IMG/VR virus record: IMGVR_UViG_3300031972_000817
Location: 1 to 37,085 of that record
Direction: 5' to 3' (one strand)
Origin: a virus
DNA: 37,085 nucleotides
The stretch's first letter is position 1. The number at the start of each line of letters is the position of its first letter. Shown here one piece after another: positions 14,786 through 36,803 of this stretch. A program made the translations under genes and the position numbers. The notes under the pieces are model-generated. The model was not told where the DNA came from. It worked only from the letters and a program-made list of their open reading frames with translations, and searched no databases.

Positions 14786-16015
14786 TTAAGCTGCCCAAGA
14801 AAGCCATTGATTCTTGGGTTTTATAGTCAATCCTTCCTCAGAAATTACAGGGACTTGGAATGTTATTCCATACTTTGGATGGGTAAACCATAAAGCTTGT
14901 TTAGGTATCTCATATTCAAATCTTGCACTTTTAGCATACTCATCATATCCCTTCAAAGATCCGTTTACTAATGCACCTTTTAACTGTAAATATTGGTGGT
15001 AGTGACCCATGATTAATTGATCAATAGGTTTATTTTGATTAGCATACTCTGCTTTAACTTTTTGTACACCTCTAGAAATAGGGCCAATCATACCAATCAT
15101 TCCAGAACCACCACGTACACCCAATCTATCGCCATGAGTTAGTAAGTATGTAGTGTCATATACTTTATAATAAGCATCATACCCTGTAGGTATCATAAAC
15201 TGCACACGATCATCACCTGCATTTTTAAAATGTTTTTCTAACATATTGTATAGCATCCAATCATAACTAGTTTGTGCGGCTTGTTTATGTCTGTATTGTT
15301 TATACATACGGCCATGATTACCATAACACGTAGGTACAAATACTTTACCAAAAGTATCTGCTAGAGATTTAATAGCCCATGTAAGCATATCAAATAATTC
15401 TAATACGTGTTCTAAATTTGTACCGTCATTTGTTTCTGTTAATTCATCATGAATATTACCTGACATCATGTCACCACCGAGGGGCACAACTATGCCTGGA
15501 TATTTAGGGTTTACCATATGATTCGTACAAAGATCTATAGCTGTCTCAACAGTAGACTTTAATCTCTGTTTGGCTATTTCTTTGTTGTATAGATTAAGAC
15601 CATCAACAGCTGTTTTATCTACAACTTCACCGTAGTGAAAATCAGATAAGAACAAAGTAGGAACACCAGGTGCCCCTTTTGCGGGTGATGATTTGATTAA
15701 CCATTTAGGCGGCTTAGGCGTATGTTCCGAAAGCTTGAATACTGTCTTACGGATTTGTTCTGCAGTTATGTTTTCGTGAGCCAATTCTTTGATCTGCTCT
15801 TTCAGATCTTTGACTTGTATTTCATACGCCACTTTTTGTTCGTACAAAGCCGCCTCTGTACTCGGTGCTACCACCGTTGGTGTTATGTTTTCGCGTTCCG
15901 CCGCATCTAGTCTACTAACTAAGGTAGTACGGGGAATGCCTAATTTTTTAGCTGCGTCAGCTTTACTGCCACCAGCTAATATGACAGAATTAACTGCCTC
16001 CTGTAATTTGTCCAT
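14786..16015 (-). CDS. Calcineurin-like metallophosphoesterase with N-terminal HTH
   Basis: 409 residues. The first 40 (GGSKADAAKKLGIPRTTLVS) form a Fis/HTH_8-style helix-turn-helix; a coiled-coil linker covers about 55-95. The rest holds the full metallophosphoesterase signature: D125-x-H127 (LFLSDFHYGE), GGD at 180-182, GNH at 232-234, H294 (LLTHGD) and GHYH at 337-340, so a two-metal active site looks intact. Such enzymes cleave phosphodiesters or phosphomonoesters; the HTH suggests it acts on or near DNA. The substrate is unknown. It is the last gene of a unit ending in a terminator at 14752-14777 and lies among late genes. Confidence 0.8.
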   Translation of the reverse strand: MDKLQEAVNSVILAGGSKADAAKKLGIPRTTLVSRLDAAERENITPTVVAPSTEAALYEQKVAYEIQVKDLKEQIKELAHENITAEQIRKTVFKLSEHTPKPPKWLIKSSPAKGAPGVPTLFLSDFHYGEVVDKTAVDGLNLYNKEIAKQRLKSTVETAIDLCTNHMVNPKYPGIVVPLGGDMMSGNIHDELTETNDGTNLEHVLELFDMLTWAIKSLADTFGKVFVPTCYGNHGRMYKQYRHKQAAQTSYDWMLYNMLEKHFKNAGDDRVQFMIPTGYDAYYKVYDTTYLLTHGDRLGVRGGSGMIGMIGPISRGVQKVKAEYANQNKPIDQLIMGHYHQYLQLKGALVNGSLKGYDEYAKSARFEYEIPKQALWFTHPKYGITFQVPVISEEGLTIKPKNQWLSWAA

Positions 16016-23321: not shown

Positions 23322-23589
23322 CGTAACCTCCCATGACCTTATAAAAATCTTCTCTCACTTTTAACGGCTCTAATTCTGCCAAGTAACATACTTCTTCAAA
23401 ATCGTCTTTCTTATATCTAAACCATAACTTTGCTTCTCTCCTATAATTTACAAACTCTTTTACAGTACCTTCGTACTGCATATCTTGTAACGCTTGGTCT
23501 AATACCGAACGCCACAACTGTATGTGATTCTCAACACTCCTATTTTCGGACTCTATGTTTTCAGCCGAAAAGTATTGAGGTCGCTTCAC
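23299..23589 (-). CDS. Small conserved phage protein between the polymerase halves
   Basis: 96 residues; the second half, NYRREAKLWFRYKKDDFEEV then CYLAELEPLKVREDF, resembles a short helical family seen in alphaproteobacterial phages, where the DF..VC.LA..DP..VR pattern recurs. No catalytic motif. The first half contains WRSVLDQALQDM. Its start overlaps the exonuclease gene's stop by one base and it overlaps the next gene by 23 bases. It has no homing-endonuclease features, so it does not itself explain the polymerase split. Confidence 0.65.
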   Translation of the reverse strand: MKRPQYFSAENIESENRSVENHIQLWRSVLDQALQDMQYEGTVKEFVNYRREAKLWFRYKKDDFEEVCYLAELEPLKVREDFYKVMGGYDEIWRKD

Positions 23590-24686
23590 TATTCATCGGC
23601 TTTTGTGCTCTGTGAAAACTTGGCTAATGTTTTCCATGCACTCTCATTTGTATACAATGAGCCGAGAAATCCTAAACCCTTTTGCATTTCGGGTTGATAG
23701 GCGTGGTGGGCGTGCATTGTATCATGTGTCACGCCAGAAACTTGTATGTTCTTTTTGAACGATAGCCATGAAACATCATACGTTTGGTTCTGGGCTACTT
23801 TTGTAATGTTAGTATCTTCTAGTATACGTTTTACCCATTGCCATGCTTTTAATTCATCTTGGTATTTCCAATAATACTCTCCGTCCTTTTTTATAAAAGG
23901 TACAACTAAAGCTGTATTCTTGTTTGGGGCAAATCCTATACACGTAATCTCTCCATTAGCCGTTTCAATATCAAATGCTAAGGGTTCGTCTTCATTATCT
24001 TTATGTATAAATTCAGATTCAAAATCTTCTAAATCTTGTAATGAAGGTTCTAAATAAAGACTACGTTCGTCTCTTATTAATTCTTGTGTTAATGATTCTT
24101 CTTTTGCTTTTACTAAATCTGCAACTACTACAGGTCTAAATTCAAAATTTCTAATAACCGCACTGGGGCTGTAAGTCGGTACGACTTTGCAATCTTGTTC
24201 AAGCAATCCATCACTACATTTCATTACCGAACCTCTATATGTACCAATCTTATCAAGCCCTGTCAGTGCCCATAACGAAGCACTACCCATTGCAATAATT
24301 ACATTAGGTTTTACTTCATTAAGCTCTTTATATAACCGCCTTACATCTTGTTCCATTTCTTGTTTAAGAAACCCATGACCTGTTGGTGGGAAAGGCGATC
24401 TCCACTCTTGTTCTTTACATAACTTTTTATAAGCAAGTCTATTGTGAAAGAAATTTGCTACGTTATCTTGAGCGGGTTTTAATTGGAAAGTGTGAGTGAG
24501 TAAGCATTCATCTGGATTGATGGAGGCAAGTTTGCACATACCTTTCAGTATATCACCTGTGCCCCCAGCTAAGATTGTATTTAATCGAGCCTCTGTTGTC
24601 GAAGGATGATCCATAACTATGGCTATGAACATTTTACCCTGTGACTTTTTAGAATCAAGTCGATTTAAAACTGCATACTCACTCAT
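23589..24686 (-). CDS. UDG-like domain fused to a 3'-5' exonuclease fragment (Exo I and II)
   Basis: 365 residues. Residues 1-195 resemble a family 4/SPO1-type uracil-DNA glycosylase fold: AGGTGDILKGM (40-50), VIIAMGSASLWALTG (129-143), RG at 151-152 and TYSPSAVIR (171-179). The usual His of the HPS motif is Ser173, so glycosylase activity is doubtful. Residues 230-350 are the start of a DnaQ-like exonuclease: D239-x-E241 (AFDIETANG), N300...D304 (QNQTYDVSW), HDTMHAHHAYQPE (321-333), GLGFLGSLYT. Exo III lies in the polymerase gene at 21509-23053. In other phages UDG, exonuclease and polymerase are one chain; here they are split. Confidence 0.8.
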   Translation of the reverse strand: MSEYAVLNRLDSKKSQGKMFIAIVMDHPSTTEARLNTILAGGTGDILKGMCKLASINPDECLLTHTFQLKPAQDNVANFFHNRLAYKKLCKEQEWRSPFPPTGHGFLKQEMEQDVRRLYKELNEVKPNVIIAMGSASLWALTGLDKIGTYRGSVMKCSDGLLEQDCKVVPTYSPSAVIRNFEFRPVVVADLVKAKEESLTQELIRDERSLYLEPSLQDLEDFESEFIHKDNEDEPLAFDIETANGEITCIGFAPNKNTALVVPFIKKDGEYYWKYQDELKAWQWVKRILEDTNITKVAQNQTYDVSWLSFKKNIQVSGVTHDTMHAHHAYQPEMQKGLGFLGSLYTNESAWKTLAKFSQSTKADE

Positions 24687-26012: not shown

Positions 26013-26993
26013 TCATGTTGATGAATTGTTTTTTCTATGTTGTGATAAATCTATTACATTTTCCCGTTGACTCGCTTCCACCAAATCTGGATGTGGTTCT
26101 TTTATAAAATCATTTTTCAAAAATATATCCCTACGAGATTGAGGGGCACTACATACTTCACGGAATCTGCACCCACCATAGTTTCCACAGCCAGTAAAAT
26201 CGGCAGGGTAGTAGTTGTTCTTCCAGAAGTTATCTGCATTTCTTAGTGCGAATAAAGTATCGGCATACCATTCCTCTATTAGTTCCTCTGTTACGTTAAA
26301 TACAGACCTGTTAAACCTTGTAAAGTTTACACCTGTTTGTACTCCGTCTATAATGAAGCCGTCTACGGGTAGCTTTAATACATGGCGACAAGCCCACAGA
26401 TAAGCAAATATCTGATTGTTAGGCATGAAACCTTGAAAGTAATAAGCTGACAGTGCTGTCTTTGTTGTTTTGAAATCAACTAAGTATAGTCTGTCATCTA
26501 GTGTTACAATCTTATCTATCCTGCCAGAAAATCTGTGTTCACCATTACCGAATGGTACTTCAAATCGCTGCTCTAACGCAGCTTCTCCGTTGGGCATTGT
26601 CGCTACTTTAAATGTATCCTCCCAGTATTCTTCCGCTCTCCATACTATTGCTCGTAGTGTAGACTCTAAACCTCTTGCACTATCGTCTGACATTTTTAAA
26701 TCTTCGCCAAATTCTTTTAGTACAAATACAAGAGCTTCTCGTAGAGCTACATCTTTTGATTTACCTTCAAATTTTGCACGATCTAATACTTCAAATCCTT
26801 CATGTACTGCTGATCCAAAGCCTGTTGCCGATGCGTATCTTTGAGATTTATAGCCTTGTAAGTTTGTATAATTATACAAACGTGGACACGCTAGGAAAGT
26901 AGATAGGCTGGATGTATCCCAAATACGTTGACGTGGTGCACCATTCTCGATGGTGAATTTTTTTAATCTAGGTAGTTCTATTTGTTCTGTCAT
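26013..26993 (-). CDS. Cas4/RecB-like PD-(D/E)XK exonuclease with four Fe-S cysteines
   Basis: 326 residues from the ATG at 26993; the frame extends to a TTG at 27026 but without a ribosome site. Motifs: C36 in FLACPRLY, GSAVHEGF with H64, GRID with D160, VDFKTTK with D173 and K175, Q194 in the following helix, then C269, C275 and C281 (GCGNYGGCRFREVC). One N-terminal and three C-terminal cysteines around a RecB nuclease core is the iron-sulfur layout of Cas4/AddB-type exonucleases. No helicase domain is attached. It likely resects DNA ends for the Sak4-like recombinase downstream. No CRISPR array is present, so a Cas role is not suggested. Confidence 0.85.
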   Translation of the reverse strand: MTEQIELPRLKKFTIENGAPRQRIWDTSSLSTFLACPRLYNYTNLQGYKSQRYASATGFGSAVHEGFEVLDRAKFEGKSKDVALREALVFVLKEFGEDLKMSDDSARGLESTLRAIVWRAEEYWEDTFKVATMPNGEAALEQRFEVPFGNGEHRFSGRIDKIVTLDDRLYLVDFKTTKTALSAYYFQGFMPNNQIFAYLWACRHVLKLPVDGFIIDGVQTGVNFTRFNRSVFNVTEELIEEWYADTLFALRNADNFWKNNYYPADFTGCGNYGGCRFREVCSAPQSRRDIFLKNDFIKEPHPDLVEASQRENVIDLSQHRKNNSST

Positions 26994-27062
26994 AATAATG
27001 TTGTTTGAATTGCTACGATTGTACAATAGAAATATGTCACAAATAAGATGAATATGAAATAT

Positions 27063-28901: not shown

Positions 28902-29056
28902 TTGTCAAACAATTTCGCATACACTAAATAACCACAGATCCCAGCCCATACTAACGAAAATACAGATGGGTGCAATAGACTAGCTATTCCTGTTACTATT
29001 ATTAAACCCCAAGTACTACATACGAATATTATTCTTGCTACTGTTTCACCATACAT
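28898..29056 (-). CDS. 52-residue two-TM membrane peptide
   Basis: Reads MYGETVARIIFVCSTWGLII then VTGIASLLHPSVFSLVWAGI and ends in KLFDK. Two hydrophobic helices (about 8-27 and 31-47) form a hairpin. It overlaps the cyclotransferase gene by 11 bases and ends in an ATGA overlap with the next gene. A predicted inner-membrane peptide of unknown function. Confidence 0.55.
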   Translation of the reverse strand: MYGETVARIIFVCSTWGLIIVTGIASLLHPSVFSLVWAGICGYLVYAKLFDK

Positions 29057-29489
29057 TTATCCACTCCATTCTATTATTTTCTTTCTTAATTTTGCTATTT
29101 TGTTTCTGATAGTAGTTCATATCTTTGTCTACTCCATTTGTATTAGGTATTAAAAACATCAATGCCCTTTCATCAGTAAAATCGTCTTGGTTATCTATAT
29201 CTTGTATATCTACTTGTATAGGAATAAAACCTGCGTTGTATTCCATAGCTAATATTTGTTCATAGTTCAATGTTGTTAGTTCATATAATTCTCCTATAAT
29301 CTGGCTACCGTGTGTATCAGAATAATACACCATTGGAAAGGAATCTAAATAGCTGCTCATTCCGTAGCTGCTATTTTTAGTTATGTAATCACCTACGAAT
29401 ACTTCGTCTACTAGCAAAGAGTTTAGTCTGTGCTTTTTCTTCAAAGTTCCGTACACAAATAACTTGTGTCGCTCTGTATCTGTCTCCAT
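29046..29489 (-). CDS. Gamma-glutamylcyclotransferase (AIG2-like)
   Basis: 147 residues. FVYGTL at 11-16 is the substrate-binding YGTL turn of the family, GELYEL at 66-71 the central strand, and E83 in AMEYNAGF the catalytic acid position. These enzymes release 5-oxoproline from gamma-glutamyl amides or peptides. In phages such a domain often accompanies an amidoligase and a class II amidotransferase, both present 3-5 kb away in the same direction (32416-34599), so it likely edits or removes gamma-glutamyl conjugates made by them. The C-terminal 30 residues are an added charged tail. Functional linkage is inferred. Confidence 0.8.
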   Translation of the reverse strand: METDTERHKLFVYGTLKKKHRLNSLLVDEVFVGDYITKNSSYGMSSYLDSFPMVYYSDTHGSQIIGELYELTTLNYEQILAMEYNAGFIPIQVDIQDIDNQDDFTDERALMFLIPNTNGVDKDMNYYQKQNSKIKKENNRMEWINVW

Positions 29490-29764
29490 TATTTCTCATA
29501 ATCTCCTTGTTTAAAAGGTAATTCCATACCTTTGTTTAATAAATGTAATTGTACAATATTTACTCTAGGCACAACTACACCACCTCCACCATTTTTAGAT
29601 TCATCATCATAAGATGATATGAGTATAACCTTATCTTTATCTTCAGATAAAATCCACCCCACAACTTCAACAGGTCGTAGTTCCTGCTTTTTTAAATCTT
29701 CTATATCCTGCCATGTGTTGTCATCTGACATAGCATCAAGCCATTTCATATATACTAATTTCAT
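29489..29764 (-). CDS. Conserved small phage protein, beta-rich
   Basis: 91 residues from the ATG at 29764, overlapping the upstream stop as ATGA; an extended frame to 29806 lies inside that gene. It reads MKLVYMKWLDAMSDDNTWQD, then RPVEVVGWILSEDKDKVILI and a C-terminal VPRVNIVQLHLL. The W.DA...W, VGW(I/L)..E.K and (I/V)P...I..L pattern recurs in small phage proteins of unknown function, probably an SH3-like barrel. It shares its last base with the cyclotransferase start. Confidence 0.6.
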   Translation of the reverse strand: MKLVYMKWLDAMSDDNTWQDIEDLKKQELRPVEVVGWILSEDKDKVILISSYDDESKNGGGGVVVPRVNIVQLHLLNKGMELPFKQGDYEK

Positions 29765-30234
29765 GTTAAATCCTCTTGACTTGCTTCCATAAATCCTTGT
29801 TCCCAATCTCTGTAAAAATCTTCGGCTGTCAAATCTTCAAATGTAACTTCTGAATGTTTTTCGACTCTAATCTTTCCTACAGGCAAATTTCTGCAATATT
29901 TACCATGTTGTGCATACTTCTTTTCTAACTTTTCACAGTATTCAAACACTACTCTCCTACCTACTTTTCGTATCTTCACGGGTATCTTATTGTTACCACA
30001 ATGTTGAATCCAAGTTCGTTTATCGTGAAAAGCAAATTCTGCTGTTCTTCTGCGATAATAAAATGGTATTCTGTCTTGTACTAATTTATTAATTAGATAA
30101 GGTACATCAGTACATCTATCTTCGTTAGTACATTCTTCATAACCATAACCATCTTCATCTTCAAAGTATTCATAATATGGTCGAATGAATTGTATTTGTA
30201 CTGCCCCCTCTGGTAAGTATTTAAAGATATGCAT
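29761..30234 (-). CDS. Hypothetical 157-residue protein
   Basis: MHIFKYLPEGAVQIQFIRPY, an acidic aromatic loop, ECTNEDRCTDVPYLINKLVQ, then a basic, Arg-rich half (YYRRRTAEFAFHDK, RKVGRRVVFEYCEKL) and a C-terminal TAEDFYRDWEQGFMEA. Five Cys are scattered and could bind metal, but spacing is irregular. The basic half suggests nucleic-acid contact. It is coupled to neighbours on both sides (TAATG and ATGA overlaps). Family not recognised. Confidence 0.55.
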   Translation of the reverse strand: MHIFKYLPEGAVQIQFIRPYYEYFEDEDGYGYEECTNEDRCTDVPYLINKLVQDRIPFYYRRRTAEFAFHDKRTWIQHCGNNKIPVKIRKVGRRVVFEYCEKLEKKYAQHGKYCRNLPVGKIRVEKHSEVTFEDLTAEDFYRDWEQGFMEASQEDLT

Positions 30235-30308
30235 TACTTACTCGCTAACCATACCATTGCTACACCACAAAAAATAATTACTCCTATTGTAATACTGTAA
30301 TCAATCAT
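30234..30308 (-). CDS. 24-residue single-TM micropeptide
   Basis: MIDYSITIGVIIFCGVAMVW then LASK: one hydrophobic helix with a lysine end. The ATG overlaps the preceding stop region, and the stop overlaps the next ATG as TAATG. No independent ribosome site. Continuous coupling on both sides and the TM pattern make translation plausible, but at this length chance cannot be excluded. Confidence 0.4.
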   Translation of the reverse strand: MIDYSITIGVIIFCGVAMVWLASK

Positions 30309-30543
30309 CTGTTGTTCCTCCATAACTTTCTTTACCTTCTGCTATATCTATTATATCAGAATTATCATCTTCGTCAAGCATTCTTTCTGGAAAAAATACT
30401 TTTTCTAATTCTTCCCACAAATGCAAAAATGCATCTGTTGCGTCTTGTTTTATATTATGTACATTGTATTCTTTTTCTACATTGTGCATTATGTTTCTTA
30501 CTACTTGTTTGTCAATTAAATGTATCTCTTTTGGTTTCGTCAT
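30301..30543 (-). CDS. Hypothetical acidic helical 80-residue protein
   Basis: Helical first part (IHLIDKQVVRNIMHNVEKEY, then IKQDATDAFLHLWEELEKVF) followed by a very acidic tail (MLDEDDNSDIID). Two helices separated by a short loop recall a small histone-like or helical-bundle fold, but the resemblance is too weak to name. It overlaps the preceding gene by four bases. Confidence 0.55.
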   Translation of the reverse strand: MTKPKEIHLIDKQVVRNIMHNVEKEYNVHNIKQDATDAFLHLWEELEKVFFPERMLDEDDNSDIIDIAEGKESYGGTTDD

Positions 30544-31040
30544 TGTGTTGCCCTTTCATACCATTCTGGCATTGGTGTACCTTTTTCCCATTTAGCGAAA
30601 CTCGACTTTTCGCCTATGTAATAAATTCTATATGCTTTTGATGTGTTCCACAATCCTCCCAGTTCTTTGTATTTATCTGGCATACATTGTGGAGGTGCTG
30701 AAGCATATTCAAAATTACCTAACATATCAGAATATTTTCTTTTGATGTATGTTAATATACGGCTAGATTTATGAATTTTGCCGTAGCGTTTAGTGTACTC
30801 CTTAGAAATTTCAACAGCGTGTTTGTATAGCCATGAGAAATTGCCTATTGATTCTGATACCCACATTGTTGATGGGTGCTTTTGATATGCTTTTTTATAG
30901 AGATGGTGGTCATCTCCTCGTAGTTCCTGCGTGGCTGTGGATAACATCTGACAAGATTCCAATAGCATTTTTGGTATGTGTTTATCACATAACATTTTAG
31001 CTGATTCTTGAGGATCTGGGTGTAAATAAAATATATTCAT
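30540..31040 (-). CDS. Conserved phage protein of the CDKHxxKM family
   Basis: 166 residues. The motifs MLCDKHIPKMLLESCQMLST, HPSTMWVSES, EYTKRYGKIHKS, QCMPDKYK and SFAKWEKGTPMPEWY are those of a phage protein family I recognise from many T4-like and marine phages but cannot name with certainty. Conserved Cys, His, Lys, Arg and Trp suggest an enzyme or nucleic-acid protein. It is coupled to the 53-codon gene upstream and follows a good promoter at 31167-31194. Confidence 0.7.
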   Translation of the reverse strand: MNIFYLHPDPQESAKMLCDKHIPKMLLESCQMLSTATQELRGDDHHLYKKAYQKHPSTMWVSESIGNFSWLYKHAVEISKEYTKRYGKIHKSSRILTYIKRKYSDMLGNFEYASAPPQCMPDKYKELGGLWNTSKAYRIYYIGEKSSFAKWEKGTPMPEWYERATQ

Positions 31041-31198
31041 TTTTTTACCTTTGGTTTTCGCATATAGTTCTTTTCAGGTTTATACCCTGAAACCATTTTC
31101 TTTTTCAGGGCTTTTACTTGCTTTATGCTTTTTTCATAAGACACTACCAATGTGTCTAATTGTTTAATTATAGCATTTTTAAATTTATTGTCAATCAT
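31037..31198 (-). CDS. 53-residue lysine-rich hypothetical protein
   Basis: MIDNKFKNAIIKQLDTLVVS, then YEKSIKQVKALKKKMVSGYK and a basic tail. A coiled-coil helix plus a strongly basic C-terminus suggests a DNA- or RNA-associated peptide. Its first codons coincide with a strong promoter whose start site falls about 38 bases inside the ORF, so it is made only from longer transcripts. Its stop overlaps the next ATG as ATGA. Confidence 0.55.
   Translation of the reverse strand: MIDNKFKNAIIKQLDTLVVSYEKSIKQVKALKKKMVSGYKPEKNYMRKPKVKK
31167..31194 (-). promoter_or_regulatory. Near-consensus promoter inside the 53-codon gene
   Basis: Minus strand TTGACA at 31194-31189, a 16-base spacer ending in TGC, TATAAT at 31172-31167: consensus hexamers plus extended -10. 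It overlaps coding sequence and would drive the CDKH-family gene and the early operon to its left while skipping the start of the 53-codon gene. Confidence 0.65.
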
Positions 31199-31325
31199 TT
31201 TCTACAACTTTCTGCCACCATTGTTCTAGTGCTTTTTGTTCCATGTATTTTTCGTATTGTTCTTCTGTTAGTGTTTCTAATAGTTCTTCTTCTTTTTGTA
31301 GTGCTAAGTTACTCATCTTACTCAT
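31191..31325 (-). CDS. 44-residue acidic hypothetical protein
   Basis: Begins MSKMSNLALQKEEELLETLT and continues EEQYEKYMEQKALEQWWQKV. A single charged helix or coiled coil. AGGGGG lies six bases before the chosen ATG. It overlaps the 49-codon gene upstream and the 53-codon gene downstream by eight bases each. Confidence 0.55.
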   Translation of the reverse strand: MSKMSNLALQKEEELLETLTEEQYEKYMEQKALEQWWQKVVEND

Positions 31326-31467
31326 GGTTGCCCCCTTGTGTTATTTTTTCAATATGAACATCATCATAGCCTTTACTTATCCAATCATCATAATCTTTTT
31401 TTGCATCTTTATAATTTATATAGTAATCATCAACACCACCTACCCAAACAATATAATTATATTTCAT
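31318..31467 (-). CDS. 49-residue acidic hypothetical protein
   Basis: Begins MKYNYIVWVGGVDDYYINYK and continues DAKKDYDDWISKGYDDVHIE. The V.VGGVDDYY...A...Y..W...GYDDV.IE pattern recurs among short phage proteins (function unknown). AAGGAG before the ATG and an extended -10 promoter 25 bases upstream make it the first confident gene of this operon. Confidence 0.65.
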   Translation of the reverse strand: MKYNYIVWVGGVDDYYINYKDAKKDYDDWISKGYDDVHIEKITQGGNHE

Positions 31468-31492
31468 TGTATCTCCTTTTGTTTATATCTGT

Positions 31493-31501
31493 ATTATACC
31501 A
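31493..31501 (-). promoter_or_regulatory. Extended -10 promoter of the small early operon
   Basis: Minus strand TGG TATAAT. There is no good -35 at 16-18 bases. Predicted start about 31486, then AAGGAG and the ATG at 31467. It matches the TGN extended -10 rule of the other leftward promoters. Confidence 0.5.
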
Positions 31502-31517
31502 ATAGAATGTGTCGGAA

Positions 31518-31610
31518 TTATGTTCTGGTGGTTTCTGATAGTAGTATGATAGTATTTTTCCGTATAACCTCGAACAAACTCGAATGGCTATGTGTTTTGA
31601 ATTTTGGCAT
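31518..31610 (-). CDS. Possible 30-residue basic micropeptide
   Basis: A short ORF, MPKFKTHSHSSLFEVIRKNT followed by IILLSETTRT, preceded by GAGGGAG at ribosome-site distance. It occupies part of the otherwise gene-poor 31.5-31.76 kb gap, upstream of the 31493 promoter. There is no clear promoter of its own and no recognised family. Confidence 0.3.
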   Translation of the reverse strand: MPKFKTHSHSSLFEVIRKNTIILLSETTRT

Positions 31611-31619
31611 ATGCGACTC

Positions 31620-31762
31620 CCTCTAATATACGATTATTAATTTATATTATTATTTTTATATACTATATGTAGTTATATTATATTATATTATACACTATTC
31701 CCCTGTATGGCATGAAAGGAAAAAAACAATACCATACGGGGTTATATAGTGTTCTTACGGGT
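31620..31762. other. AT-rich non-coding gap between operons
   Basis: Between the end of the amidoligase operon and the small early genes. It holds a pure A/T stretch (about 31640-31690, with TTATA/TATTA repeats) followed by the inverted repeat at 31692-31752. No ORF is convincing here. It could be a terminator zone, a DNA-unwinding region or a recombination site. Confidence 0.6.
31692..31752. repeat. Long interrupted inverted repeat
   Basis: ACACTAT, CCCC and GTATGG on the left (31692-31710) pair in order with CCATAC, GGGG and ATAGTGT on the right (31732-31752): 17 base pairs interrupted by a bulged T and a small asymmetric loop, around a 21-base purine-rich loop. It lies just after the stop of the 217-codon gene, so it may end the amidoligase transcript, but no T tract follows on the minus strand. 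Confidence 0.7.
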
Positions 31763-32416
31763 TTATACGAAACGATCAAAACAGTTTTCTAATTCCTGTC
31801 GTTTTTCACTACTGTTTGTTTCATCTACTAACACACCAAGTTCTGAAAATTCGGTGTGTGTATTTAGATAAGTTCCATAAACCATAGGGGGTACTGTATT
31901 TATATCTGCCATAGGTCTGAATGTCAGATGTTCATTAATACTCCCTGTTGTAGAATATTGAAATACTTCCCTGTACTTATCTTTGTCTGCGTGTACAGTT
32001 TTAGATAAGTTAGGAAAGCACATACTTACATTATCCCACTTGCCACTAAATAAGCTATTCATGGCTTGGGAATATGTGCGTTTTGGTGTATATAATTTTT
32101 CAAATGTATTCTTAGTTATTACTACACCAGACATTACAACACCTACAATATTACTACCAATCCTCTGTGATCTAGGTGTGTATTTAACATAGCTTGTGTC
32201 ATAATCCCAATCTTTTAAGACATACCCAAATGATACATCTTGCAATCGTAGGTAGTTTGGAAACATGGAATAGCTGTTTAATCTTACCCAAACTTTGGAT
32301 AAACTATTCTCATGTTTCAAGGCTTCCCCATACCACCTTTTCTTTTCTAAGTGATACATAAATTGACTTCTTTTACCTACTTGGTGCATTGGTAAAGGTA
32401 CTGCAATGCTAGTCAT
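31763..32416 (-). CDS. Unknown protein in the amidoligase operon
   Basis: 217 residues, starting MTSIAVPLPMHQVGKRSQFM. Aromatic-rich and apparently alpha/beta, with SKVWVRLNSYSMFPNYLRLQ, GVVMSGVVITKNTFEKLY and a C-terminal acidic helix. No signal peptide, TM segment or known catalytic motif. The ATG overlaps the stop of the glutamine amidotransferase gene by one base, tying it to the amidoligase system, perhaps as the conjugation target, an adaptor or a third enzyme. Family not recognised. Confidence 0.6.
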   Translation of the reverse strand: MTSIAVPLPMHQVGKRSQFMYHLEKKRWYGEALKHENSLSKVWVRLNSYSMFPNYLRLQDVSFGYVLKDWDYDTSYVKYTPRSQRIGSNIVGVVMSGVVITKNTFEKLYTPKRTYSQAMNSLFSGKWDNVSMCFPNLSKTVHADKDKYREVFQYSTTGSINEHLTFRPMADINTVPPMVYGTYLNTHTEFSELGVLVDETNSSEKRQELENCFDRFV

Positions 32417-33381
32417 TATTTGCCCCCTTTGATTGCATTTATTTGATCTTCCATGTATTCGTCATGCTCATCTTTTAAGGCACATAACTCAACAAGTCCG
32501 TCATTTCCGTTGCAAATATCATGTATCCAATTCGCTGTACCTTGTGGATTATCTTCCACAATGTCTGCAACATCATCATATTCTTTTCCGATAAAATCTT
32601 CGGCTGTTAATTGCGTTCCATCTTTTTTGGGGTTATGCAATTCACTTTGTGAATTATAATTATGTAATTGTCTATGAGAAGATACACCAGAATAGTGACC
32701 GTACCACTCATCATCATCATAATAATATTTCATTGGATCATTTTTGACCATAGTATCTGTATCAAAATCATACTTGTAATCTCTGCTTACAGCATAGCCA
32801 CCAGTTGGCTCTAATGAATAAGTATTAGATAACCACATATCATCATTTTGTTTGCCTTGTTCAGCATTGATGATTGTAAATTCTCTTGACTTATCATCAA
32901 GAAATAAAAACTTATCAGTACCTATTTGTTCTGATAACATATCTTGCCACTCATGGTTTTCTAATAAATCTGGGTTGTTTATTAGCTGTGGTTTTAATAC
33001 CCATTTAATAAATTGGTGTGTATCAGATTTATCATCATCAATCATTGGTGTTGGTAATTGTGCACCATTGTGCATTAACCACATATTGCGATCATCTCCA
33101 TTTTGTGTAGATAATATTTGATATGGGTGTGAATTACTTTTAGTGATTGCACCATTGGTTGCAAATCTAAAGTGTAAACCCATAGGCACATCAACATTTT
33201 TAAAACTAGACCATAGTTTTTGCAAGTGTTGAAACGATTTAGGTTGCCCCATTTTGCGTACTTGTATTTTATCTTCTGCATAAAACATAAGTCCAAATCC
33301 GTCTGAATTGTTTTGATAAGCACAGTTAACCATAGTATCGGTAATTTTCTGTGGGTTGTCAGCTTGTATAATTAAACACAT
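32416..33381 (-). CDS. Class II glutamine amidotransferase-like (Ntn hydrolase) protein
   Basis: 321 residues. Cys2 directly after the initiator Met (MCLIIQAD) would become the N-terminal nucleophile. NSDGFGLMFY at 25-34, H70-FRFATNGAI and MHNG at 103-106 are the conserved GATase II elements. The C-terminal 150 residues are acidic, Tyr/His-rich and without a synthase domain, so the enzyme either supplies ammonia to a partner or hydrolyses an amide. It lies 18 bases downstream of the amidoligase, as predicted for phage amidoligase systems. Core assignment is firm; substrate unknown. Confidence 0.85.
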   Translation of the reverse strand: MCLIIQADNPQKITDTMVNCAYQNNSDGFGLMFYAEDKIQVRKMGQPKSFQHLQKLWSSFKNVDVPMGLHFRFATNGAITKSNSHPYQILSTQNGDDRNMWLMHNGAQLPTPMIDDDKSDTHQFIKWVLKPQLINNPDLLENHEWQDMLSEQIGTDKFLFLDDKSREFTIINAEQGKQNDDMWLSNTYSLEPTGGYAVSRDYKYDFDTDTMVKNDPMKYYYDDDEWYGHYSGVSSHRQLHNYNSQSELHNPKKDGTQLTAEDFIGKEYDDVADIVEDNPQGTANWIHDICNGNDGLVELCALKDEHDEYMEDQINAIKGGK

Positions 33382-33399
33382 AATATTTTTCCTTTCAAA

Positions 33400-34599
33400 T
33401 TATACTGCGTTTGCTTGTAAAGATAACTCCTCTTGAGCTACTTTGCGACTTGCTCTGCCACCACTATATTTTCTGTGGCATAACCAAGCATAAAAAATTG
33501 GGTATGTAGTTCTGTTTTCTGGTTGTTCCATAAACCTTAAAAAAGATTTGTAATGCAAACTCATACCAGATAAACCAGTTTGTTTTGCAAAATGTACTAA
33601 AGCATCTGCAAATTCTAATACCCTCATAAAACCATTGTGTGCTAAGTTTGATTTGAATATCCTTAATTCAATAGTATGTTGATTGCTCATATTAACTGCT
33701 TCGTATCTGTCATCACGGCTTGTTCTATATAAGCTATCTGTTATTTTCTTAGGATATTTTTTCGCCCATTGATCTGAAGATCGCCCAGCTATATCATCTA
33801 CAAATTGGTTGTTCTCATCTGAATTTATAAAGATAAGTATTTTTCCAATCTCACTTGGCTTTAATTGTTTTTTACCTATGTGTATATGTAGTCCTGCTGT
33901 ATCTGTTTTCCACCCTCTGATTTGTTTTGTTAAATCAGATTTTAAAAACTTACTCCACGCATTTTTTTGATATGCAAAACTACATGGTGCTGTTACAATC
34001 TCAAATCCATTTGATAAACTGCCATCTGATTTTAACCTAGCAAAATCATAAACCGAATTATATACTTGTTCAGCAATATCATCATCTGCATTTCGTCTGC
34101 GTTCTACCTCTAATTCTATTCCATAAGTTATAGTTTTTTCCCTATCTTCATCATACAAGAATTGATTTCCTAGTTCAGAAGCCACATCATAATCCCACTC
34201 AAATACATACTCATCTTCTCTGTTTTCTTCTTCGTACATTTCATCATCATAATCACTTTGTGAAATATATGTATCTTGATAATCAGAATATACATAATTT
34301 CTATCTAAACAAGATTCACAAACTAATCCATCATTGTAAACTGTGCCACCACTATCTGTGTATTCTAATGATTCACAATCATCACAATTAAATACATCAT
34401 TATCTATCTCCCACCTTGTTAAAAGTGAATGAGATTGATATTTGTGATCTACTCTGTTTTCCTCGTCTTTAAAATAATTTGTAATTATATCTATTGCTCG
34501 TTCTAAATACTCGGTGTCATCAACTTGACCTTTAGTATAAGCCCATTTTACTTGATCGTAGTAGCTAGTGTTTTCTCTTAACTTAGATAATAAAGTCAT
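33400..34599 (-). CDS. Amidoligase (glutamate-cysteine-ligase fold) with zinc ribbon
   Basis: 399 residues from the ATG at 34599, chosen because AAGGA precedes it; the frame extends to a GTG at 34626. A zinc ribbon lies at 72-97 (CDDC ... CESC). The COOH-NH2 ligase core follows an acidic linker: YGIELEVE (159-166), SDGSLSNGFEIVTAP (191-205), AGLHIHIGK (236-244) and HTIELRIFKS (309-318), the metal/ATP-binding acidic and His residues of the family. Such enzymes form amide bonds between a carboxylate and an amine using ATP. It shares an operon with a GATase II protein and an unknown protein. The substrate cannot be told from sequence. Confidence 0.85.
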   Translation of the reverse strand: MTLLSKLRENTSYYDQVKWAYTKGQVDDTEYLERAIDIITNYFKDEENRVDHKYQSHSLLTRWEIDNDVFNCDDCESLEYTDSGGTVYNDGLVCESCLDRNYVYSDYQDTYISQSDYDDEMYEEENREDEYVFEWDYDVASELGNQFLYDEDREKTITYGIELEVERRRNADDDIAEQVYNSVYDFARLKSDGSLSNGFEIVTAPCSFAYQKNAWSKFLKSDLTKQIRGWKTDTAGLHIHIGKKQLKPSEIGKILIFINSDENNQFVDDIAGRSSDQWAKKYPKKITDSLYRTSRDDRYEAVNMSNQHTIELRIFKSNLAHNGFMRVLEFADALVHFAKQTGLSGMSLHYKSFLRFMEQPENRTTYPIFYAWLCHRKYSGGRASRKVAQEELSLQANAV

Positions 34600-35873: not shown

Positions 35874-36803
35874 TTATTGTTGGTTGTCTAACCAATCAAT
35901 AGTTTTAGTAGCCAAAGCACAAGCCTTCAATAATGTGTTTGGTTTTTCGTCAAGCTGTTTAATCCATGATTTTATATATTGTGCATGGTTTGGTTGTAAT
36001 GCTGAAGCAATCCCAAATTTAGCACAATTTATAGCACTTGATAATTCGGCAACTAATTCCTCAAAAGCATAACCGAAATTGTCAAGCCTATCCAATCTTG
36101 ACTTGTGTCCTGTTGCGTGTGCTAATTCATGGAACATAGTAGCATAAAATATTTCTGTTTCATTTACTGCCAAGCCTTGAATTTTTTTCCATGAAGCCTT
36201 ATCACTCATTGAAATATAATCCTGTAATGGGGAATAATAACAACGCCCTTCTGTATTACTCTCAATTTTGATACCTGTATTTTTTATATAGGTTTCAATT
36301 TCTGGTATTTCTGTGATTTTGCTTTTTGGTTTTGGTTGCTCTTGTGGTTTTACTTTTAAATGCTCAAGCCCTTCCGTTTGATCTATGTTAAAAACACAAT
36401 ACCAAGACATTCCACCAAATTTTTTTGTTTCTTCGGTTTCTTCATCTTTTTTAACAATATCATACATTTTATATAAATATTGACCTTTGTCGGTTGCTGT
36501 TTCACCTTTTTTAATTCTACCACCTAAAGATTGGATTTGTTTATAAGTTCCCCATAAATTAAATTCATAGTTAAATTGCTCTTGAAACGATAAACAAGCC
36601 ATTGAATTATATAAGCCATAAGTTCCGCCAATTATTTTATTTGGATTTTGCATTGATCTAGTCAATGCTTCAAATGGTTTAACCCATTTTCCAGACATTG
36701 CACCTTCATCAATTAGTTTTAAAGTTTTTATTAATTCAGATAAAATCGGTTTAACATATTTTTCGGTTTTTTCTTTTTGCGTCATTTTAGTATATTTATT
36801 CAT
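35874..36803 (-). CDS. ArdC-like anti-restriction protein (ssDNA-binding plus zincin)
   Basis: 309 residues. The N-terminal 150 match the ArdC/DUF1738 ssDNA-binding domain: KPFEALTRSMQNPN, GTYGLYNSMACLSFQ and GGRIKKGETAT. A Lys/Pro linker (152-165) leads to a metallopeptidase-type domain with H225-E226-x-x-H229 (MFHELAHATGH) and Glu248/249 (YAFEELVAELSSA). In plasmids ArdC protects incoming ssDNA from restriction; here it is at the presumed leading or early end of a phage. AAGGA precedes the ATG. Domain assignment is firm; anti-restriction function is by family. Confidence 0.85.
   Translation of the reverse strand: MNKYTKMTQKEKTEKYVKPILSELIKTLKLIDEGAMSGKWVKPFEALTRSMQNPNKIIGGTYGLYNSMACLSFQEQFNYEFNLWGTYKQIQSLGGRIKKGETATDKGQYLYKMYDIVKKDEETEETKKFGGMSWYCVFNIDQTEGLEHLKVKPQEQPKPKSKITEIPEIETYIKNTGIKIESNTEGRCYYSPLQDYISMSDKASWKKIQGLAVNETEIFYATMFHELAHATGHKSRLDRLDNFGYAFEELVAELSSAINCAKFGIASALQPNHAQYIKSWIKQLDEKPNTLLKACALATKTIDWLDNQQ

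What the first reader, a model, noticed from the sequence alone, without database searches (positions are those of the whole stretch)
29046..34599. Amidoligase, GATase II and gamma-glutamylcyclotransferase: predicted conjugation system of unknown target
Comparative genomics has described phage and bacterial sets pairing a COOH-NH2 ligase with an Ntn amidotransferase and an AIG2-like cyclotransferase, but the biochemical product is, as far as I know, unresolved. Here all three are in one direction, with intact-looking catalytic residues, a zinc ribbon on the ligase and an unknown 217-residue partner fused into the operon. It could attach glutamate or an amine to a protein, a metabolite or DNA bases.
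Basis: partly seen in the sequence, partly recalled or inferred. Interest (0 to 1): 0.75.

Follow-up and report, generated by a model that had tools for sequence, protein, structure and literature searches.

The report
Marine phage amide-ligase gene cassette
A marine virus of bacteria carries a reduced form of a known but never biochemically tested enzyme set: an ATP-driven amide ligase, a partner that frees ammonia from glutamine, and an enzyme that removes glutamyl groups, most likely used to alter a small molecule or cell-wall building block of its host.

Summary
Active-site residues and the ligase's zinc-ribbon cysteines are conserved. The ligase model matches only glutamine-synthetase-type ligases. 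The amidotransferase is adjacent to 139 of 158 related ligase ORFs. In the window's own phage family, ligase, amidotransferase and cyclotransferase are present in every locus long enough to show them. Unrelated phages pair the cyclotransferase with them independently, once as a protein fusion. The system is not new in kind: phiEco32, LUZ24 and RIO-1 carry a fuller version, published as a "peptidoglycan modification cassette" (hypothesis, untested). The window is a reduced variant: no ATP-grasp, no second COOH-NH2 ligase, plus a fast-evolving, translationally coupled 217-aa protein of no known fold that basal loci lack. A DNA-base target is unsupported: no base-hypermodification enzyme was recognised. 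Best reading: a glutamine-dependent amide ligase with a gamma-glutamyl-removing partner, probably acting on a cytoplasmic peptide such as a wall precursor. Substrate unproven.

The parts
33400..34599 (-). GS-fold amidoligase (PF12224), 399 aa, with N-terminal CxxC...CxxC zinc ribbon and GxELE / DGS..GFE / GxHxH / IExR motifs
   Evidence: PF12224 2.5e-6; conserved C72 C75 C94 C97 E162 E164 D192 E200 H238 R273 E311 R313; pLDDT 86.8; fold = GS-type ligases
32416..33381 (-). Class-II (Ntn) glutamine amidotransferase, 321 aa; nucleophile Cys2, Arg72, Asn105-Gly106, Asp120
   Evidence: PF13230 1.9e-5; residues invariant in 34; GlmS glutaminase domain 1.3e-6
31763..32416 (-). 217-aa protein of unknown fold, start codon overlaps the amidotransferase stop (TAATG); accessory partner of the ligase pair in the marine clade
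   Evidence: abuts the amidotransferase in 41 marine loci; TAATG; no family or fold match; absent in L054, L294; omega 0.36
29046..29489 (-). AIG2-like gamma-glutamyl(amine) cyclotransferase, 147 aa, YGTL motif and catalytic Glu83
   Evidence: PF06094 1.2e-7; Glu83 invariant in 22; GGACT structures 3jub, 2kl2, 1vkb; conserved in the family
29489..29806 (-). 105-aa protein directly upstream of the cyclotransferase (WLDAMSDDNTW motif, phrog_25889); true start probably ATG 29764. Syntenic family gene; also found in phages without the cassette, so probably not a part
29761..30234 (-). 157-aa protein of unknown function, syntenic in the marine clade; probably not a part

Best explanation
A reduced, marine-phage version of the phage amidoligase cassette known from phiEco32, LUZ24 and RIO-1. 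Mechanism: the amidotransferase hydrolyses glutamine with its N-terminal Cys2 and hands ammonia to the adjacent GS-fold ligase, which activates a carboxylate with ATP as an acyl phosphate and forms an amide, much as LtsA/AsnB-type enzymes do within one protein. The separately placed cyclotransferase removes gamma-glutamyl groups from amines as 5-oxoproline, either recycling or deprotecting the product or clearing a side product. The 217-aa protein is translationally coupled to the amidotransferase and is probably a non-catalytic partner, for example for substrate choice or assembly. Most likely target: a cytoplasmic peptide or amino-acid metabolite of the host, with a peptidoglycan precursor the leading candidate. 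Shown here: enzyme families, ligase fold, intact active sites, gene linkage, purifying selection. Inferred: ammonia transfer, order of steps, target.
For: Ligase fold matches only GS-superfamily enzymes, top hit gamma-glutamylmethylamide synthetase, then GS, YbdK, PafA, Dop. Amidotransferase matches GlmS/PurF glutaminase domains with the catalytic set conserved. Ligase and amidotransferase adjacent in 139 of 158 ligase ORFs, near in 7, 6 cut by a contig end. Cyclotransferase present in 33 of 33 family loci with room, ligase plus amidotransferase in 19 of 19. Independent linkage of the cyclotransferase elsewhere: fused to the amidotransferase in MW202828, overlapping it in Rhizobium phage RHph_N3_13, adjacent in L088 and L132, and in LUZ24, phiEco32 and RIO-1; at least 4 changes on the tree. 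The cyclotransferase profile finds gamma-glutamylamine cyclotransferases. Profile comparison ties ligase, amidotransferase and cyclotransferase to the LUZ24/phiEco32/RIO-1 set. dN/dS 0.14-0.17 for amidotransferase and cyclotransferase, 0.32 for the ligase. The published hypothesis for the fuller set is peptidoglycan modification.
Against: No biochemistry exists for any member in papers I could read. The ATP-grasp and second COOH-NH2 ligase of the fuller cassette are missing. Freshwater ligase-amidotransferase contigs have no cyclotransferase (0 of 24), so it is not essential to the core reaction. Within the window's family there is no natural loss to test coupling; the four loci lacking all parts share little more than the 105-aa gene and are other phages. 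Nothing in the sequence points specifically to peptidoglycan. The ligase-structure TM-scores are low (about 0.3) although all top hits agree.
Confidence: 0.5

Rival explanations
1. Peptidoglycan modification for superinfection exclusion or lysis timing: the ligase pair amidates or decorates carboxylates of the stem peptide (D-Glu or meso-DAP) in cytoplasmic precursors. This is the published hypothesis for the fuller cassette and the leading candidate target of the best explanation.
For: Stated for RIO-1-like and LUZ24-like phages (PMC5498523; PMC11945000). Cellular precedents with the same logic are glutamine-dependent amidation of peptidoglycan by MurT/GatD (PMC3267633, abstract) and by LtsA/AsnB (own knowledge). 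An enzyme acting on precursors would be cytosolic, and no transmembrane or export feature was noticed in these proteins.
Against: No peptidoglycan-binding domain was recognised and recurrent neighbours of the ligase loci are phage-clade-specific proteins that were not annotated further. Never tested.
Confidence: 0.35
2. Small-molecule metabolism: the ligase makes a gamma-glutamyl amide of an amine (as gamma-glutamylmethylamide or gamma-glutamylputrescine synthetases do) and the cyclotransferase cleaves it, supplying nitrogen or detoxifying an amine during infection.
For: Top fold match is gamma-glutamylmethylamide synthetase; cyclotransferase profile matches GGACT; ligase and amidotransferase are present in the OM43 methylotroph phages MEP401/402 (PMC10580990).
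Against: A class-II amidotransferase supplies ammonia and would not be needed for ligating a ready-made amine. GS-family fold similarity does not fix substrate.
Confidence: 0.25
3. Protein conjugation: the ligase modifies a protein side chain or C-terminus, with the 217-aa protein as substrate or adaptor, in the manner of the GS-fold Pup ligase PafA.
For: PafA and Dop are among the fold matches. The 217-aa gene is translationally coupled, fast-evolving (omega 0.36, 54% identity to its nearest relative) and has no fold match.
Against: The 217-aa protein is absent in basal family members L054 and L294 that keep the ligase, amidotransferase and cyclotransferase, and no conserved C-terminal Glu/Gln tail is seen.
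Confidence: 0.12
4. Modification of phage DNA bases with glutamate or an amide.
For: Amino-acid-decorated thymines exist in other phages (own knowledge).
Against: No thymidylate-synthase-like hydroxymethylase, base kinase or 7-deazaguanine gene was recognised among the window's main ORFs.
Confidence: 0.04

Closest known systems
Phage 'peptidoglycan modification cassette' of phiEco32, LUZ24/PaP3, RIO-1/PSA-HP1 (Iyer and Hardies as cited in PMC5498523)
   Same: Homologous Amidoligase_2 (hhalign 97%, E 2e-11), class-II amidotransferase (90%, E 2e-6) and AIG2-like cyclotransferase (98.6%, E 6e-16)
   Different: Window lacks the RimK-like ATP-grasp and the PF14395-type COOH-NH2 ligase, has a zinc-ribbon ligase, keeps the cyclotransferase 2.3 kb away, and adds the 217-aa protein, which does not match their roughly 190-aa unknown
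Ligase plus amidotransferase pairs of OM43 phages MEP401/402 (PMC10580990) and Marvin-like mycobacteriophages
   Same: Adjacent ligase then amidotransferase
   Different: No cyclotransferase found in the stretches read and no 217-aa homologue; ligase identity 23-28%
GGACT / AIG2-like domain-containing protein 1 (3jub, 2kl2)
   Same: Same family, YGTL motif and catalytic Glu
   Different: Substrate unknown here
GS-fold carboxylate-amine ligases: gamma-glutamylmethylamide synthetase, YbdK, PafA/Dop
   Same: Same fold class
   Different: No significant sequence match in the PDB

Membership tests
Phage Amidoligase_2 plus class-II amidotransferase pair | GS-fold COOH-NH2 ligase with intact motifs | tested here: met
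Phage Amidoligase_2 plus class-II amidotransferase pair | Adjacent Ntn glutamine amidotransferase with Cys2, Arg, Asn-Gly and Asp | tested here: met
Phage Amidoligase_2 plus class-II amidotransferase pair | Enzymatic activity | not testable with these tools
   no biochemistry available
Full phiEco32/LUZ24/RIO-1 cassette | AIG2-like cyclotransferase in the set | tested here: met
   present but 2.3 kb downstream
Full phiEco32/LUZ24/RIO-1 cassette | RimK-like ATP-grasp ligase | tested here: not met
   profile from LUZ24, phiEco32, RIO-1 and a Rhizobium phage finds none in the window
Full phiEco32/LUZ24/RIO-1 cassette | Second COOH-NH2 ligase (PF14395 type) | tested here: not met
Full phiEco32/LUZ24/RIO-1 cassette | Acts on peptidoglycan | not testable with these tools
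   published hypothesis only
GGCT/AIG2-like cyclotransferase | YGTL motif and catalytic Glu | tested here: met
   G14, T15, L16 and E83 conserved
DNA base hypermodification pathway | Dedicated base-modifying enzymes in the same genome | tested here: not met
   none recognised (main ORFs; record may be incomplete)
LUZ24 gp17-type unknown protein | Homology of the 217-aa protein to the unknown gene next to the amidoligase | tested here: not met
   hhalign 0.1%

The most novel reading that the evidence does not exclude
The fast-evolving 217-aa protein is a dedicated substrate or specificity subunit that takes over the role of the missing ATP-grasp and second ligase, making this a self-contained phage protein- or metabolite-conjugation system. 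The sister locus L124, which keeps an ATP-grasp, has two tandem ORFs after the amidotransferase with the same short motifs, which would fit duplication and retargeting of such a subunit (the motif pattern was drawn up after seeing them, so this is weak).
Probability: 0.12. Interest if true: 0.65.

Novelty: new variant of a known kind. Interest (0 to 1): 0.38.

Why it matters
Ligase-amidotransferase pairs are common in phages of several environments, and many also keep a cyclotransferase, yet no product has been reported in the papers read. The marine family gives the smallest constant set (three conserved enzymes, plus one optional protein), without the extra ligases, so it is the most tractable version for expression and mass spectrometry. 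If it alters wall precursors it would be a lytic-phage route to superinfection exclusion or lysis control; if it alters metabolites or proteins it would be a new kind of host takeover.

Tried and rejected
Single-protein scans of viral contigs with the ligase and the 217-aa protein found nothing; a two-sequence ligase alignment worked. Alignment A3 had no stretch conserved enough to scan with. The first iterated cyclotransferase profile drifted onto amidotransferases because of the MW202828 fusion and was rebuilt from stand-alone seeds. The 217-aa protein was tested against known families and as a LUZ24 gp17 homologue: no Pfam, PHROG, PDB-sequence, PDB-fold or viral-fold match; its model is moderate (pLDDT 74, other models about 50-56), so the fold negatives are weak. 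A 2x2 co-occurrence table on the 105-aa gene (27 both, 4 neither, 0 discordant) was not used as proof, because the four negatives share little more than that gene with the family. Long amidotransferase branches make the tree positions of L004, L005, L088 and L132 unsure. Iyer 2009 (PMC3268129) is not held; Hardies 2013 was not looked up. Both are known here only through papers that cite them. A scan of one genome per bacterial species gave only 4 distant ligase loci, so the subtype looks phage-bound. Rfam: nothing.
Full report
What is there. The window is a 37,085-base IMG/VR virus record. On the minus strand, in transcription order, lie an Amidoligase_2 ligase (33400-34599), a class-II glutamine amidotransferase (32416-33381), a 217-aa protein (31763-32416) and, 2.27 kb further on, an AIG2-like cyclotransferase (29046-29489). 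The ligase start at 34599 is supported by conservation of that methionine. The amidotransferase stop and the 217-aa start overlap as TAATG. After the 217-aa gene comes a candidate hairpin (31690-31752, z -4.5; equivalent stretches of three relatives gave weaker values) and then other genes, including a pyrimidine-dimer-glycosylase-like gene, a 157-aa gene and a 105-aa gene, before the cyclotransferase. So three genes are tightly coupled and the fourth is in the same long run but separate.

Active sites. Across 55 ligases the GxELE, DGS..GFE, GxHxH and IExR motifs are conserved, as are four zinc-ribbon cysteines C72, C75, C94, C97. A confident model (pLDDT 86.8) matches gamma-glutamylmethylamide synthetase, glutamine synthetase, YbdK, PafA and Dop in the PDB; all top hits are GS-type ligases, though TM-scores are only about 0.3. 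Across 34 amidotransferases Cys2, Arg72, Asn105-Gly106 and Asp120 are invariant; the profile aligns to the GlmS glutaminase domain through HFR.AT.G and HNG. Across 22 cyclotransferases Glu83 is invariant and YGTL is largely kept; the profile finds gamma-glutamylamine cyclotransferase structures. That the GS-like motifs correspond to the metal, ATP and substrate residues of glutamine synthetase rests on established knowledge of that family, not on a residue-level superposition here.

Linkage. Of 158 ligase ORFs in fetched viral loci, 132 are followed directly by the amidotransferase, 7 are preceded by it, 7 have it nearby, 6 are cut by a contig end and 6 have none. In the window's marine phage family, recruited independently with the nuclease gene at 26013-27026, the cyclotransferase is present in 33 of 33 loci with enough upstream DNA, ligase plus amidotransferase in 19 of 19, and the 217-aa gene in 15 of 19. 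Outside the family the cyclotransferase is usually missing (0 of 24 freshwater-type contigs), but it appears independently beside the pair: fused to the amidotransferase in MW202828, overlapping it in Rhizobium phage RHph_N3_13 where it is annotated as hypothetical, adjacent in L088, overlapping a ligase in L132, and in LUZ24, phiEco32 and RIO-1. Parsimony on the amidotransferase tree needs at least four changes. Repeated association, including a fusion, is good evidence for a shared pathway. Within the marine family the association alone could be inheritance: no member has lost one enzyme, and the four loci without any part share little more than the 105-aa gene with it.

The 217-aa protein. 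It abuts the amidotransferase in 41 marine loci (-55 to +4 bases) and evolves fast (54% identity and dN/dS 0.36 against the nearest relative, compared with 0.17 for the amidotransferase in the same pair and 0.14-0.17 for the cyclotransferase against its nearest relatives). It has no match in Pfam, PHROGs, PDB sequences, PDB folds or viral folds. No comparable ORF follows the amidotransferase in basal loci L054 and L294. It is therefore an optional partner. The sister locus L124, which retains an ATP-grasp, has two tandem ORFs after the amidotransferase with similar short motifs; homology is not significant by hhalign and the motif pattern was drawn up with them in view.

How it most likely works. 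A class-II amidotransferase beside a GS-fold ligase is best read as a glutamine-dependent amide ligase: glutamine hydrolysis at Cys2, ammonia transfer, ATP activation of a carboxylate, amide formation. The cyclotransferase family releases 5-oxoproline from gamma-glutamyl amines, so it would recycle, deprotect or prune gamma-glutamyl products. The target is unknown. The published proposal for the fuller cassette is peptidoglycan side-chain modification, against superinfection or to prepare lysis (PMC5498523; PMC11945000); a cellular precedent is glutamine-dependent peptidoglycan amidation by MurT/GatD (PMC3267633, abstract). I rank this first among targets at 0.35, ahead of small amine metabolism (0.25), proteins (0.12) and DNA (0.04). 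For DNA, no base-hypermodification gene was recognised among the main ORFs.

Comparison with the known. LUZ24, phiEco32 and RIO-1 carry COOH-NH2 ligase, amidoligase, amidotransferase, ATP-grasp and cyclotransferase together (UFV-P2). Profiles link the window's ligase, amidotransferase and cyclotransferase to theirs. The window lacks the ATP-grasp and the second ligase, so it does not meet the definition of the full cassette; it belongs to the ligase-amidotransferase core with a cyclotransferase added, and plausibly works like the full set. Hence 'new variant of a known kind', with modest interest: the family is known and annotated, the chemistry is open, and this is a minimal version that would be convenient to test.

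Noticed in passing
window 23589-24686 (-): One protein carries a uracil-DNA-glycosylase-superfamily domain (PF03167) and a 3'-5' exonuclease domain (PF01612) next to a separate PolA polymerase gene.
   Followed up: no
window 35874-36803 (-): ArdC-like anti-restriction protein (ArdcN plus zincin-like metallopeptidase; phrog_7245) upstream of the ligase, also in the nearest relative L008.
   Followed up: no
window 31690-31752 (-): Strong RNA hairpin (-23.3 kcal/mol, z -4.5) with a U-run in its loop, right after the 217-aa gene; no T-tail after the stem.
   Followed up: partly
window 31167-31194 (-): Perfect TTGACA-16-TATAAT sigma-70-like site between the ligase block and the cyclotransferase; the total number of such sites is at chance level.
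   Followed up: no
L038 7592-7955: Cyclotransferase split over two overlapping frames in one marine relative: sequencing error or decay.
   Followed up: no
L068, L069, L071 (contigs of 102-365 kb): Large phages carry two ligase-like and two amidotransferase ORFs plus ATP-grasp- and COOH-NH2-ligase-like genes within about 7 kb.
   Followed up: no
L132 3289-10553: Cyclotransferase, three ligases, amidotransferase and ATP-grasp in one run.
   Followed up: no
L005 4606-5202 (Rhizobium phage RHph_N3_13, EVB79_044): 'Hypothetical protein' that is a divergent AIG2-like cyclotransferase overlapping the amidotransferase gene.
   Followed up: yes
window 14786-16015 (-): 409-aa protein with N-terminal helix-turn-helix and, by eye, a calcineurin-like phosphoesterase (GNHG) region that Pfam does not score.
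   Followed up: no
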